64,000 nt of DNA from Psychrobacter pasteurii (GTDB lineage Bacteria > Pseudomonadota > Gammaproteobacteria > Pseudomonadales > Moraxellaceae): positions 1 through 64,000 of the forward strand of contig NZ_FUGD01000076.1 of the NCBI RefSeq assembly GCF_900162815.1, in the 5' to 3' direction. The notes below the pieces were generated by a model, which ran no database searches, was not told the origin of the DNA, and was given only the letters and a program-made list of their open reading frames with translations. Of this stretch, positions 300 through 50,627 are shown piece after piece; within the stretch, counting starts at the first letter, position 1; each line of letters opens with the position of its first letter. The translations under genes were made by a program, and so were the position numbers.

Positions 300-336
300 C
301 CCTGAAGTGGGTGGTTTTACGGCGACCGGTGATAAA
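300..336 (-). mobile_element. Truncated left end of an IS200/IS605-type element
   Basis: These 37 bases are identical to 48937-48973, the left end of the tnpB element in this window. The copy keeps one arm of the terminal hairpin (GTGGGTGG), the GGCGACC arm and the flanking TTTAT (332-336 read on the minus strand). It lacks the opposite arms, which should lie to its left. The lost part is replaced by the end of the IS4-type gene region, so the junction is at 299/300. Confidence 0.75.
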
Positions 337-45999: not shown

Positions 46000-46470
46000 T
46001 TAAGAAGCCTCTGTAAAAAAATCAGCCAAAAAAGTTTCACTAATTAACAAGTCTCGATTATACCAGTTATAAAGAGTACTTCGGCGCCAACCCAAGTCCG
46101 TAGACTCAATTACTCGGCTATTGGGCAAGCAGTTTTGACGCTTAAATAACACATAACCAATGGGAGTGCCGCGTAAGTACTGTAGACGCTTAGCCTCTCC
46201 TTTTAAGCTAATCAAAGGAAAGATACTTTGCGCCGCCACCCAAGGCTTCTCACTATTTCCATATAATAAAGACTCTCGCACCCAAGCCATTACCGGCCTA
46301 TTTAACTGCGCACCTTGATAGCCCATTTGCTTTTTTTGGGCCAAAGTTAAGGCCCGATACCCCTCAAAGGTAGGCTCTACTTTTAGCGACTGCCCTGCCT
46401 TAGCTTCTAATAAGGCAGTTAATGAGCCGTCTGAGGTCAGCCAATATAGCGCCTCTGCTGATATAGACAT
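46000..46470 (-). CDS. ubiC: Chorismate-pyruvate lyase
   Basis: A 156-residue enzyme making 4-hydroxybenzoate from chorismate, the first step to ubiquinone. The pattern WLTSDGSLTALLE, the conserved Arg in MAWVRESLLYG, then RGTPIGYVLF, and RRSTLYNWYNRDLLISETFL with the late conserved Glu, match UbiC. AAGGA lies 7 bases before the ATG. It follows the GNAT gene by 27 bp and is probably co-transcribed with it. Because an insertion sequence interrupts the head of that unit, ubiC expression may now depend on transcription through or from the element. ubiA is not adjacent. Confidence 0.85.
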   Translation of the reverse strand: MSISAEALYWLTSDGSLTALLEAKAGQSLKVEPTFEGYRALTLAQKKQMGYQGAQLNRPVMAWVRESLLYGNSEKPWVAAQSIFPLISLKGEAKRLQYLRGTPIGYVLFKRQNCLPNSRVIESTDLGWRRSTLYNWYNRDLLISETFLADFFTEAS

Positions 46471-46497: not shown

Positions 46498-47655
46498 TCA
46501 GCCTTTAAACTGAGGCATGTTGTCAATATTAAAGGGGAGCGCGTTATGGGCTTGCTGACGATATTGCTGCATATACTGACGATCTTGCTCACAAAAATTC
46601 GCAATTGCTGGCTCAAAGCGCGCATCATAAACACGATGTAGCGAGTGGGTCTTATGGGGTATAAAACCTCGAATCAGTTTGTGCTCACCTTGCGTACCTG
46701 GGTCAAAGTACTGCAATCCTTTTTCGATAGCAAACTCAATGCCTTGATAATAACACAGCTCAAAGTGTAGGCTGTCATACTCATCTAATGAGCCCCAGTA
46801 GCGACCATATAATGTCGCATCAGGCTGATTTGGGTCATCATAAAAGAACAAGCTGCTGGCCACGATATCCCCATTTTCATCTAGACCCTGCGCCAACATT
46901 AAGTGTTCAGGCATAGTTTGGGAAATTTTCTCAAAAAACTCTGGGGTTAAATAAGGATGACGGCCACGCACCGCGTAAGTCATGGCGTAACATTGATAAA
47001 ATACCGCCCAATCTTCATCAGTAATCTGATTCCCAGTTTTAATTTGACAGGTCAGGTTTTGCTTGGCAATCTTCTTACGCTCAGCCCGGATATTTTTGCG
47101 CTTTTTGGCGGTCAGCGTACTTAAGAAGTCATCAAAGTTAGAAAACGGTTTTGGGCGACCCTCTTCGTCAATATCAGTCAGCTTTTGGTTTTGCCATAAA
47201 AACTGACAGCCTTCACGCTCAAGTAACTGCTGCTCAAACAAAGGGTTAGATAAGACATTAAACGCTTGTTGCTGCTCATCATTGACAAACAAACCATGCC
47301 AGCTTGAAGCTCCTGTTTGTTTTGCCACATCATCGATTGCAGTGATCGCCACTTGCCAAATTGCTTGGTCTACTGTAACTCCCTCCGCCAACCAAAAGCG
47401 CTGCCCACTCACTGGGGTATAAGGCACACTGGTCACGAGCCTAGGATAATAGTCCACACCATAACGCGCATAAGCATCCGCCCATGCATGGTCAAACACA
47501 TACTCCCCTTGATGATGACCTTTAATAAACAGAGGAAGTACCGCAACTGGCGACTGCTCTTCATCTTGATAAATAATAATATATAACGGCACCCAACCTG
47601 ATTTTTGACCAATAGCGCCCGTCTCTGTCAGCGCTTGCCAATAAGCAAAAGACAT
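46498..47655 (-). CDS. GNAT/FemAB-like acyltransferase (DUF482), 5' end interrupted by an IS element
   Basis: From ATG 47655 this is a 385-residue protein of the DUF482/COG3146 group (GNAT N-acetyltransferase with a FemAB-like fold): FWQAL-like start, VLPLFIKGHHQGEYVFDHAWADAY, KKRKNIRAERKK, and the C-terminal FDPGTQGEHKLIRGFIPHKTHSLH. ATG 47655 has no ribosome-binding site. The frame stays open upstream for 31 codons, and the part encoding KIYSYAITQDLTWQ...DTPFM looks like the true N-terminus of the family. The right end of the tnpB element abuts it at about 47731. GGAGG of the element lies 5 bases before ATT 47730, so a 410-residue product starting there is possible. The substrate is unknown. 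Confidence 0.85.
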   Translation of the reverse strand: MSFAYWQALTETGAIGQKSGWVPLYIIIYQDEEQSPVAVLPLFIKGHHQGEYVFDHAWADAYARYGVDYYPRLVTSVPYTPVSGQRFWLAEGVTVDQAIWQVAITAIDDVAKQTGASSWHGLFVNDEQQQAFNVLSNPLFEQQLLEREGCQFLWQNQKLTDIDEEGRPKPFSNFDDFLSTLTAKKRKNIRAERKKIAKQNLTCQIKTGNQITDEDWAVFYQCYAMTYAVRGRHPYLTPEFFEKISQTMPEHLMLAQGLDENGDIVASSLFFYDDPNQPDATLYGRYWGSLDEYDSLHFELCYYQGIEFAIEKGLQYFDPGTQGEHKLIRGFIPHKTHSLHRVYDARFEPAIANFCEQDRQYMQQYRQQAHNALPFNIDNMPQFKG

Positions 47656-47748
47656 AAAGGGGGTGTCTGGCTGCTGCCAGTTAGCGTCTGCCTGCCAAGT
47701 TAAGTCTTGCGTGATTGCGTATGAATAAATCTTGACCTCCTCCCCTCG

Positions 47749-48855
47749 CTAAACCGAGGGGATTCCTACAGCTAGACGGTCAAGCCCGACCGCAAGGATG
47801 TTCTTAGCAGCATTGATATCTCTATCATGCCATGAGCCACACTCAGCACACCTCCATCCTCTTATTCGCAAACCTGCTCTACCTTTCGGACTACTGTCAC
47901 TTATATTAAGGCAGCACGAGCAGGTCTGGGTAGTGTAACTCTCATTTACCATCTCAAACTGACAACCTGCATGCTTGCATTTATATTCCAGTTGTCGTTT
48001 AAGTTCAAACCATCCGGCATCGTATGTCGATTTAGCCAGTTTGGTCATCGAATTGGTAAATGAGCGTGATTTAACATCACCAACCACAATCAAGGCATTA
48101 TTCTGCACAAGCTTGGTGGTGAATTTATGAATTAAGTCTAATCTTGTATTTTTTATTTTGGCATGAATTGCTTTGACACGTTTTTTATTCTTAGCACGCT
48201 GGGCTACTGCTAATTTATTCGCCCACTTTTGCGTTTGCTTAATAGTTAGCTTGTCACCATTTGAGGTGGTAGCAGACTCTTTTAAACCTAAGTCAATACC
48301 AATGCTGCCCATACCACTTGCTTGTTTGGGGGAGTCTTTAACAGTAATACACGCATACCAACGATTACGACTGTCTTGTACTATCTCAAGCGTGTTGATT
48401 TGATACAGGCTTAGGTTGTAGCTATCGAATACATCTATAATAAGCTTTTGACCTTTGGATAGTGATAATTGAAGGGTTGATTTAAGTGCTTTCTTTCCCG
48501 TTTGTCTTGTGCTTAGATGCTTGATAGCAGATTTTTTAAAAGGTATCCAGCCCAGTGATTTACGTTTGGCATCAGGACGGTTGGTACGCCAGTTAAGTTT
48601 GGCCTTTTTAAACTGTTTGCGAGCCTTGGCGTGAGTCTCATTGATAGCTTGTAAGGTCTGACTGTGTAATCCTAAATACTCACCGCTTCCTTTGGTGTAC
48701 TCACTTAGATCATAAGCACTAAAAAACTTACCGGTACGTTTTAGATGCTCAAAACTTAGAGCATTAACATAGTTCCACACGAAGTTTACCGAACCGCTTA
48801 GCTGATTCAGCTCTTTTATGTGCTTGTCTTTAATGCGTAGCTTGAGGGTTTTCAT
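47749..48855 (-). CDS. tnpB: TnpB, RNA-guided endonuclease of an IS200/IS605-type element
   Basis: A 368-residue OrfB/TnpB protein, the presumed ancestor type of Cas12. The N-terminal OrfB helix-turn-helix region is followed by RuvC-I GIDLG (D188), a zinc ribbon (C312, C315, C336, C339) and RuvC-III SWHDRDINAAKN (D346). At the RuvC-II position, where most TnpBs have Glu in an I-x-x-E-D-L motif, this protein has VVGDVKSR (G259-D260). A nearby conserved-looking Glu is E305 in VNESYTTQTC. The reading frame is otherwise intact. The stop codon overlaps the right-end hairpin, which should also encode the omega RNA scaffold. Confidence 0.93.
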   Translation of the reverse strand: MKTLKLRIKDKHIKELNQLSGSVNFVWNYVNALSFEHLKRTGKFFSAYDLSEYTKGSGEYLGLHSQTLQAINETHAKARKQFKKAKLNWRTNRPDAKRKSLGWIPFKKSAIKHLSTRQTGKKALKSTLQLSLSKGQKLIIDVFDSYNLSLYQINTLEIVQDSRNRWYACITVKDSPKQASGMGSIGIDLGLKESATTSNGDKLTIKQTQKWANKLAVAQRAKNKKRVKAIHAKIKNTRLDLIHKFTTKLVQNNALIVVGDVKSRSFTNSMTKLAKSTYDAGWFELKRQLEYKCKHAGCQFEMVNESYTTQTCSCCLNISDSSPKGRAGLRIRGWRCAECGSWHDRDINAAKNILAVGLDRLAVGIPSV

Positions 48856-48930
48856 ACCTTTAGTATGCCGAGGTTAATTTTAACTTACAACCCTTTAAGT
48901 ACTACTCACGACAGTATACGTCGCCTTATA

Positions 48931-48973
48931 TCCACCCCCTGAAGTGGGTGGTTTTACGGCGACCGGTGATAAA
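48931..48973 (-). repeat. Left-end hairpin of the tnpB element; 37-bp copy also at 300-336
   Basis: Inner arms CCACCC (48932-48937) and GGGTGG (48945-48950) lie inside outer arms GTCGCC (48920-48925) and GGCGAC (48958-48963). Bases 48937-48973 recur exactly at 300-336. Confidence 0.8.
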
Positions 48974-49033
48974 TAAGCTGTTGCCTGAACTTGTTAATAA
49001 CAGTAGTCATAGAGTTTTTCAATAACAGGAGAA

Positions 49034-49145: not shown

Positions 49146-50627
49146 TTAAGCCGTTTTAAAGCTTATTTCTTTAAAAGCCTGCTTTAAGTTGTGGTTGTGT
49201 TTTAAGATGCGTTTTTCAATCATGTGGTACTGATCTTTAAGCGCCTCATCTGCCTCGTGCAAACGCTCAGCAAATTCATTTTTCTTCAGCTGCATGGCTT
49301 TGGCTTTTAAAGCTTGCCATTCTTTAACGGTGTCATTAAATAACTGATATTCAAAATGAACACGGTCGCTAAAGTTTTGCAGGCTACGTGGCAGGTTACT
49401 GTCAGTAATTAGACCTTGCTCATCACTGATTTTTTCAATCTTTTTCTGAGCCCGCTTAAACATCATATTTACTTCAGCGTGTTTAATGGTCATGTTGTCT
49501 ACCGTACGTAGATCAGAGGCCAATCCTACTTTTGCTAACGCGGCAATAAGCCATTTGGTTGGGTCGTATTGCCACCATTTAACCCCATTACGGTAGTCAT
49601 ATTGGAAGAAGTGATGGTAGTTATGATAGCCCTCACCCCAAGTCGGTATAGCCAATAAGAAGTTATCTCTGGCAGTGTTGGTATCCGTATAAGGACGGGT
49701 TCCAAACATATGGCATAAAGAGTTAATAAAGAAGGTAAAGTGGTGGTTGATAACCAAACGCACTAGACCTGCTAGCAATAAAGTTCCCCAGACATCGCCA
49801 ATTAACCAGCCAATAGCACCGATTAGACCAACGTTAGTGGCCACTACCCATAATCCATAATATTTATGCTGGATTTGGAGCACCTTGTCTTTGGTTAAAT
49901 CTGGGATGTTTTTGTAGTCAAAGTTACCACTGGGGTAATTTTTTAACATCCAACCAATGTGACTAAACCAAAAGCCGCGTTTGGCTGAATAAGGATCATC
50001 CATAGGGTCATCTACATGTCTATGGTGAGTTCGGTGACCTGAGCACCAATCAAATGCTGATCCTTGAACCGCCAGTGTGGCTCCTAATAAGAAGAAGTTA
50101 CGCACTGCAGGATGTGCCTTATAAGTGCGATGTGACATCAATCTATGATAGCCGGTGGTAATACTCATCCCTGTCCAAATGGCAATAGCACCAAAAGTTA
50201 TCCAGACAGGTTTGCTGACTTCATGAGTAGCGAGATACCAAGGAGTAATCACTGCTGCGGCAATCGGAGTTGCTATCAATACTGCTGCAGGAATCCAGTT
50301 AATGGGAGCACGTTTAAAGGCAAGTTCTTTGGCCAGTTGCTCTTGTTTGAGTTGTTCCTCAGCCGTTAATGGCTCTGAAGAATTACCAACAGATTCTGAC
50401 TCTAACTCTGCTGTATTTTGACGCTCATCTTTGACAGTCTTCATAGAAGTAGGAATAGGCAAAGGGCTGCTAGAGTTCAGCTGTTTATTAATTAGCTGAA
50501 CTAATGGCGAACGAGACAATGCGCCTGCTACTTTTTTGCCGGAGTTAACTGCTTTGCTGGCATTGTGTAGTGAACGTTGTCCGACAGCACGCAAGGAAGA
50601 TAAAAGACTTCCATTTCTTATTTTCAT
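49146..50627 (-). CDS. Membrane fatty-acid desaturase (acyl-CoA delta-9 type)
   Basis: A 493-residue di-iron desaturase with the three histidine boxes HRLMSHRTY, HRTHHRHVD and HNYHH, in the order and spacing of the stearoyl-CoA (delta-9) desaturase family. Hydrophobic pairs lie near residues 110-155 and 265-300. It is longer than usual: about 95 residues of polar N-terminus (Ser/Lys-rich, then QEQLKQEQ-like) and about 100 residues of charged, helical C-terminus follow the last box. Introducing double bonds would keep membranes fluid in the cold, fitting a psychrotolerant host. Regiospecificity is inferred. Confidence 0.9.
   Translation of the reverse strand: MKIRNGSLLSSLRAVGQRSLHNASKAVNSGKKVAGALSRSPLVQLINKQLNSSSPLPIPTSMKTVKDERQNTAELESESVGNSSEPLTAEEQLKQEQLAKELAFKRAPINWIPAAVLIATPIAAAVITPWYLATHEVSKPVWITFGAIAIWTGMSITTGYHRLMSHRTYKAHPAVRNFFLLGATLAVQGSAFDWCSGHRTHHRHVDDPMDDPYSAKRGFWFSHIGWMLKNYPSGNFDYKNIPDLTKDKVLQIQHKYYGLWVVATNVGLIGAIGWLIGDVWGTLLLAGLVRLVINHHFTFFINSLCHMFGTRPYTDTNTARDNFLLAIPTWGEGYHNYHHFFQYDYRNGVKWWQYDPTKWLIAALAKVGLASDLRTVDNMTIKHAEVNMMFKRAQKKIEKISDEQGLITDSNLPRSLQNFSDRVHFEYQLFNDTVKEWQALKAKAMQLKKNEFAERLHEADEALKDQYHMIEKRILKHNHNLKQAFKEISFKTA

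What the first reader, a model, noticed from the sequence alone, without database searches (positions are those of the whole stretch)
46498..48975. tnpB element inserted in the head of an acyltransferase gene, possibly giving it a new translation start
The right end of the IS200/IS605-type element (about 47731) directly abuts codons that look like the authentic N-terminus of the GNAT/FemAB gene, upstream of its first ATG. ATG 47655 has no ribosome-binding site. GGAGG from the element lies 5 bases before ATT 47730, in frame, which would restore about 25 residues. Upstream of the element only about 60 bases remain before the desaturase terminator, and these include TTGAAA and TATTAA-like promoter boxes that are now 1.2 kb away. 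The insertion thus either disables the gene (and perhaps ubiC behind it) or rewires its start.
Basis: partly seen in the sequence, partly recalled or inferred. Interest (0 to 1): 0.55.

Follow-up and report, generated by a model that had tools for sequence, protein, structure and literature searches.

The report
Mobile element splitting a start codon
A common mobile element sits exactly inside the start codon of a conserved bacterial gene, where its own end may now serve as a makeshift ribosome-binding site, and the DNA on its other side belongs to a different neighbourhood in related species.

Summary
The sequence facts are right. A 1,237-bp tnpB-only IS200/IS605-type element (window 47732-48968, minus strand; 63 right ends in this Psychrobacter-like genome) lies after its target TTTAT inside the start codon of a FemAB-like gene, splitting ATG as AT|G. 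In 22 of 26 relatives' loci read, ATG occupies exactly that codon; none needs ATG 47655. The best initiation context left is the in-frame ATT 47730, behind the element's GGAGGAGGT (-12.7 kcal/mol) and 18 nt after the tnpB stop.

The 60 bases beyond the element are not this gene's old promoter. In relatives icd lies upstream of FemAB, and selO follows the desaturase. Here those partners lie beside element ends on other contigs (C78, C145). The element therefore joins halves of two insertion sites, through an inversion between copies or an assembly chimera; I favour the inversion, unproven.

Whether the gene is rewired or silenced stays open. Its ORF is intact and shows no excess amino-acid change, but that test has no power if the insertion is recent. 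Known kind of element, neat configuration, modest interest.

The parts
47732..48968 (-). tnpB-only IS200/IS605-type element, 1,237 bp; left end at 48968, right end ...GGAGGAGGTCAA at 47732
   Evidence: 63 right ends in the own genome; of 41 left-end junctions held, 39 follow TTTAT and 2 follow GTTAT
47749..48855 (-). tnpB, 368 aa; canonical RuvC-II Glu position is Gly (IVVGDVKS), alternative Glu six residues before the zinc finger (NESYTTQTCSCC)
   Evidence: Pfam PF07282 and PF01385; alignments to 9yyg and ISDra2 TnpB 8bf8; E_alt definition in PMC10711439 (passages)
47731..47731 (-). G, third base of the former ATG start codon of the FemAB-like gene (the AT was the end of the TTTAT target)
   Evidence: all 41 left-end junctions held end in TTAT; ATG at this codon in 22 of 26 relatives' loci read
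47731..47748 (-). 18-nt spacer between the tnpB stop (TAG 47749-47751) and ATT 47730; holds the Shine-Dalgarno-like GGAGGAGGT and the element end TCAA
   Evidence: duplex with anti-SD -12.7 kcal/mol, spacing 4 nt
46498..47730 (-). FemAB-like (PF04339) open frame, 410 codons from ATT 47730, no stop or frameshift; the only match in the genome
47653..47655 (-). first ATG in the frame, residue 26, no ribosome-binding site found; not the native start
46000..46470 (-). ubiC (chorismate lyase PF04345), 27 nt behind FemAB
   Evidence: a UbiC match lies behind FemAB in 30 of 34 loci searched, three of which repeat a genome
48969..49145 (-). left flank: desaturase terminator and interval that in relatives leads to selO; not FemAB's ancestral upstream DNA
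49146..50627 (-). fatty acid desaturase (PF00487); followed by selO in 5 of 7 relatives with a match, by FemAB in none

Best explanation
A tnpB-only IS200/IS605-type element inserted after TTTAT at the start of the FemAB-like gene and split its ATG as AT|G (shown, from the right flank, the fixed target and the relatives). The element now found here joins the right half of that insertion to the left flank of another insertion, between the desaturase and selO (shown as a non-ancestral adjacency). The likeliest cause is homologous recombination between two oppositely oriented copies, giving a large inversion (inferred). The gene thus lost its start codon and its own upstream region. Its full-length frame can now be read only as a second cistron behind tnpB: a transcript that enters or starts in the element, an element-borne Shine-Dalgarno within the 18 nt after the tnpB stop, and initiation at the AUU that was codon 2 (inferred). 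Expression is probably lower than before, but not nil (inferred).
For: Relatives' ATG at exactly this codon, 22 of 26 loci read. Target TTTAT in 39 of 41 left-end junctions held. icd is the next gene upstream of FemAB in 4 of 6 genomes read and one ORF further in a fifth; icd lies beside a left end on own contig C78. selO behind the desaturase in 5 of 7 relatives with a match, and selO beside a right end on own contig C145. Joining the C40 left flank to the C145 right flank gives an interval colinear with the desaturase-selO interval of G038. FemAB and the desaturase lie on opposite strands of one contig, about 1.0-1.1 Mb apart, in G055 (shorter way round, taken as circular), G046 and G044, as an inversion needs. 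SD duplex at ATT 47730 -12.7 kcal/mol, against -3.5 for the C78 context and 0 to -2.1 in four relatives. infC of the same genome probably starts at ATT behind GGAG. The frame is intact, and the gene has a match in 104 of 105 genomes of the genus, the own one included. Nonsynonymous distances to four outgroups are no larger than those of G055.
Against: No transcript or protein data. The assembly is a draft of 229 contigs, C145 begins inside an element and C78 ends soon after a left end, so a chimeric join is possible. An intact frame is also expected if the insertion is recent, and dS to the nearest relative is 1.2, so one search has no power over recent time. In the minimum-energy fold the SD is largely paired (first bases in a hairpin, AGGUC with downstream bases); the centroid leaves the latter part open; the fold is no better than shuffles, z -0.81. 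The promoter scan found no site on this strand within or just before the element. AUU is a weak start codon (recalled). TnpB maturation of its guide RNA could cut this transcript (recalled mechanism). The 60 bases nearest the left junction align only loosely with G038.
Confidence: 0.5

Rival explanations
1. The insertion silenced the FemAB-like gene, and perhaps ubiC behind it; the frame is intact only because the event is recent.
For: Native ATG destroyed and native upstream region displaced. AUU starts are weak (recalled). The last 103 bp of the element are identical to other held copies, as in a young or gene-converted copy. No promoter-like site on this strand within the element.
Against: Gene with a match in 104 of 105 genomes. 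No excess nonsynonymous change (no power over recent time). Of the matches scored (40 of 132 candidates), the best other full-length copy is 93% identical and the best partial one 95%, which would suit an older insertion if no closer copy was missed. Strong SD in frame with an AUU.
Confidence: 0.33
2. The C40 join is an assembly chimera: icd still precedes the element at FemAB, and the desaturase element is followed by selO. The start-codon split would stand. (This rival concerns the left flank only and does not exclude the others.)
For: Draft of 229 contigs. C145 begins inside an element, and C78 ends in other DNA that starts 32 bases into a left end, so neither partner junction is closed. 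Successive stretches of the C40 copy match different copies best.
Against: The C40 copy shares no exact stretch above 113 bp with any other copy held, though many of those are partial. Opposite orientation of the two loci in three relatives is what a viable inversion needs.
Confidence: 0.35
3. Translation restarts at ATG 47655 (or GTG 47592), giving a protein that lacks 25 or more N-terminal residues.
For: ATG 47655 is the first ordinary start codon in the frame.
Against: No SD pairing found before 47655. The Met is also an internal Met in the five relatives aligned. All 26 relatives' loci read have a start upstream of it.
Confidence: 0.1

Closest known systems
Solo-tnpB IS200/IS605 elements with a TTTAT motif (Sulfolobus islandicus, PMC10640517, passages read)
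   Same: tnpB without tnpA, TTTAT at the left end, putative guide RNA at the 3' end of tnpB
   Different: Bacterial, alternative active-site Glu, 63 right ends in one genome; here the flank that would be the guide is the start of a host gene
TnpBs with alternative RuvC-II glutamate (PMC10711439, passages read)
   Same: No Glu at the canonical place, Glu six residues before the first zinc-finger Cys
   Different: RuvC-I motif is DLG, not the DPG of pro-Fanzors, so not of that clade by the paper's definition
Rearrangement by recombination between IS copies (PMC11708052, abstract read)
   Same: A copy whose two flanks come from two places
   Different: IS200/IS605 elements make no target duplications (recalled), so the origin of the flanks had to come from gene order in relatives
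infC-type AUU initiation
   Same: Strong SD followed by AUU; infC of this genome probably has it
   Different: infC uses it for autoregulation (recalled); here it would be an accident of insertion

Membership tests
IS200/IS605 superfamily, tnpB-only type | TnpB (OrfB_IS605 / Cas12f1-like TNB) protein | tested here: met
   PF07282 3.1e-22 and PF01385 2.1e-11
IS200/IS605 superfamily, tnpB-only type | Fixed short target left of the left end, no target duplication | tested here: met
   TTTAT in 39 of 41 junctions held, GTTAT in 2; 0 of 63 right flanks begin with TTTAT
IS200/IS605 superfamily, tnpB-only type | Y1 transposase available in trans | tested here: inconclusive
   8 PF01797 matches in the own genome, 3 without internal stop, one of these a fragment; no test that they move this element
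TnpB with alternative RuvC-II Glu | ExxxxxxCxxC and no canonical Glu | tested here: met
   NESYTTQTCSCC; canonical position is Gly in the alignments to 8bf8 and 9yyg
pro-Fanzor | DPG motif in RuvC-I | tested here: not met
   GIDLGLKES
TnpB guide RNA (omega RNA) | Transcript of the right end plus about 16-20 nt of flank | not testable with these tools
   No RNA data; only a weak full-length HgcC-model match at 47719-47855, 28.1 bits against a gathering score of 50, E 7e-4
AUU-initiated gene | Translation starting at AUU | not testable with these tools
   Only sequence context available

The most novel reading that the evidence does not exclude
The right end of a TnpB element, which is also the 3' end of its guide RNA, acts as a portable ribosome-binding site. 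The FemAB-like gene has become an AUU-started second cistron of the tnpB message, and maturation of the guide RNA, whose guide is the gene's own first codons, competes with its translation, so that TnpB regulates a host gene in cis.
Probability: 0.15. Interest if true: 0.65.

Novelty: new member of a known kind. Interest (0 to 1): 0.33.

Why it matters
If the gene is still made, this is a natural case of a mobile element that destroys a start codon and supplies a working substitute (SD plus AUU) from its own end. It would also put a TnpB guide RNA and a host coding sequence on one transcript. Even if silent, the locus shows that the two flanks of a high-copy tnpB element must not be assumed to be one interrupted site.

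Tried and rejected
1) Recurrent start-codon splitting. In the own genome one other right flank begins G-ATT (C27:195, L077) and looked like a second split start. The 90%-identical homologue in G039 has a longer N-terminus in the same frame, so that copy interrupts a gene internally. Start-codon splitting is thus 1 of the 63 right flanks read here. A flank in another genome, G011 C1:115765 (L198), opens a 290-codon frame one base after the junction (G AAA GTG ATG ...) and could be a second case; Pfam gave it no name and I did not follow it.

2) Conversion of TTG starts to ATG. Several G039 right flanks begin TG, which with the element's last A gives ATG. In the 15 TG-type flanks fetched and read (9 from G039, 6 from other genomes, chosen from the capped list) the frames from that ATG were 2 to 47 codons long, so rejected.

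3) Dating the insertion by divergence of element copies. Successive stretches of the C40 copy match different copies best, and the partner contigs give no whole element. Rejected as uninformative.

4) dN/dS as evidence of continued function. Values 0.06-0.09 for this gene against five relatives, but dS is 1.2 or more, so no power for recent time.

5) Orientation of neighbouring genes at the 63 copies: both orientations are common; no claim made.

6) Literature. Searches for tnpB with start codon and Shine-Dalgarno, Psychrobacter with TnpB, insertion sequence with AUU or ATT start and IS605 with inversion listed nothing that I recognised, from titles and the abstract openings shown, as this configuration. 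HgcC with TnpB gave 0 papers. led to the papers cited. Only open-licence PMC papers were searched, lists were capped, and I opened four papers (PMC10711439, PMC4247193 and PMC10640517: passages; PMC11708052: abstract and section list).

Full report
What is there. The window is contig C40:1-64000 of a 2.94-Mb, 229-contig draft genome. Among named records the gene's best match is Psychrobacter phenylpyruvicus DSM 7000 at 77%, in a list that may leave out records very near the window's own genome; the nearest unnamed relative is G055 at 85%. On the minus strand lies an element of 1,237 bp, 47732-48968, with one gene, tnpB (368 aa; PF07282 and PF01385). The own genome holds 63 right ends at up to 3 mismatches, against 3 matches of the reversed control pattern; 63 distinct right flanks were read. 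The element's DNA has a match in 39 of 105 genomes of the genus. Of 41 distinct left-end junctions held, 39 follow TTTAT and 2 follow GTTAT. The left ends listed for G032, G039 and G044 also mostly follow TTTAT (capped list). This is the motif reported for solo-tnpB elements of Sulfolobus islandicus (PMC10640517, passages read).

The start codon. The host base after the right end is G 47731, followed by ATT TAT TCA TAC. Since the element follows TTAT in all 41 junctions held, the empty site read ...TTATGATTTATTCATAC, so ATG was split as AT|G. This does not depend on the present left flank. In relatives the residue aligned to Ile 47730 is preceded by ATG in 22 of 26 loci read. The other four (L013, L016, L018, L023) have an in-frame start further upstream, and none needs the Met at 47655. 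The FemAB_like match begins at residue 12 of the junction frame and profile position 10.

The left flank is from elsewhere. Upstream of FemAB in relatives lies a divergent monomeric isocitrate dehydrogenase gene (icd): it is the next gene in 4 of 6 genomes read (G055, G038, G073, G032), lies one ORF further in Psychrobacter sp. GP33 (L211), and is absent in the 3.5 kb read of the bin11 MAG (L210). In the own genome icd (PF03971) sits on contig C78, about 720 bp from an element left end; the four relatives have about 620 to 850 bp between icd and FemAB. The C78 intergenic DNA itself aligns only weakly with theirs, so this link rests on gene order, orientation and spacing. Thirty-two bases into that left end other DNA begins, perhaps another insertion sequence; Pfam gave no name for its short frame. 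The desaturase is followed by selO in 5 of 7 relatives with a desaturase match (not in G032, G074). In the own genome selO (PF02696) follows a right end on C145 (L003). The C40 left flank joined to the C145 right flank is colinear with the desaturase-selO interval of G038: clear identity at the terminator on the left and from about ten bases beyond the junction on the right, with the 60 bases next to the junction aligning only loosely.

Inversion or assembly chimera. In G055, G046 and G044, FemAB and the desaturase are on opposite strands of one contig, about 1.0-1.1 Mb apart, the shorter way round in G055 if its single contig is circular. Elements co-oriented with these genes would be inverted to each other. 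Crossing over between them would invert the segment and create the C40 join together with an icd-element-selO join, which fits the contig ends of C78 and C145 without proving it. The C40 copy has no exact stretch above 113 bp in common with other copies held, many of them partial, which argues against a careless join. I put a real rearrangement somewhat above an artefact.

How the gene may be read now. tnpB stops at 47749; 18 nt later comes ATT 47730 in frame, with GGAGGAGGT between. Duplex energy with the anti-Shine-Dalgarno is -12.7 kcal/mol at a 4-nt spacing. The context on C78 has -3.5, four relatives 0 to -2.1, and before ATG 47655 none was found. The GGAGGAGG form is carried by 13 of the 63 right ends; most others have GGAGGAAG, so it is not peculiar to this locus. 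An 8-bp hairpin, present in the minimum-energy and centroid folds, takes in the first bases of the SD match; the minimum-energy fold also pairs AGGUC with downstream bases, the centroid leaves that part open, and the fold is no better than shuffles (42 of 200 as good). For infC in the own genome the frame after the last stop reads GGA GTA ATA CCT ATT AAA ..., with no ATG, GTG or TTG before a TTG six codons after the ATT. An AUU start is therefore probable there, as in E. coli infC (recalled). The FemAB-like gene has a match in 104 of 105 genomes of the genus and one match here. Its nonsynonymous distance to L011-L014 (0.139, 0.145, 0.156, 0.158) is no larger than that of G055 (0.144, 0.165, 0.163, 0.161). 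These points fit continued function but do not prove it, since a recent insertion would look the same.

The TnpB. Aligned with ISDra2 TnpB, the RuvC-II Glu position is Gly (IVVGDVKS), and NESYTTQTCSCC carries Glu six residues before the zinc finger, the E_alt arrangement described in PMC10711439 (passages read). So it need not be dead. The element lacks tnpA; 8 Y1-transposase matches exist elsewhere in the genome, 3 without internal stop.

Verdict. The start-codon split is as good as shown. The foreign left flank is shown, its cause inferred. AUU initiation is the best reading of the anatomy but untested. Ordinary type of event, unusually neat geometry.

Noticed in passing
L041, L043, L046, L073, L117 (own-genome copies): 5 of 63 copies lie exactly at the stop codon of an opposing open frame of 90 codons or more (the 97-codon one at L046 has no start codon). 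The lost NNA-TAA is replaced by NNT-TGA because the element end TCAA reads TTGA on the other strand, so the opposing protein keeps its length with at most one residue changed. No test against chance was made.
   Followed up: partly
window 47719-47855 minus; L290, L293, L294: The right end of the element matches the Rfam model HgcC (RF00062) full length but below its gathering score of 50: window 28.1 bits (E 7e-4), and 3 of 6 related loci at 21.9-25.1 bits (E 0.04-0.29). HgcC1-3 of Thermococcus kodakarensis are transcribed from within transposase genes in the same direction, HgcC4 and 5 are not (PMC4247193, passages). HgcC may in part be an archaeal TnpB guide RNA.
   Followed up: partly
G000 C27:195 (L077) and C42:419: Another copy interrupts an accessory gene internally (homologue in G039 at 90%; matches in 6 of 105 genomes, the own included); its left-end half appears to be on contig C42.
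   Followed up: partly
G000 C110:11542 with G039 C169:9048; G000 C38:6144 with G039 C197:17486: Two right-end junctions have the same 30-31 flanking bases in two species, so some insertions of this family predate their split or moved with their surroundings.
   Followed up: no
G011 C1:115765 (L198): A right end is followed after one G by a 290-codon frame (AAA GTG ATG ...), possibly a second start-region insertion in another species; no Pfam family.
   Followed up: no
window 309-330: A second left end of the same element family lies near the start of the contig.
   Followed up: no
own genome, 14 of 63 right flanks: In 14 of 63 copies, the FemAB and C27 copies not counted, a same-strand frame of 90 codons or more has its first start codon within 64 nt of the right end, so the element often sits in leader regions.
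   Followed up: no
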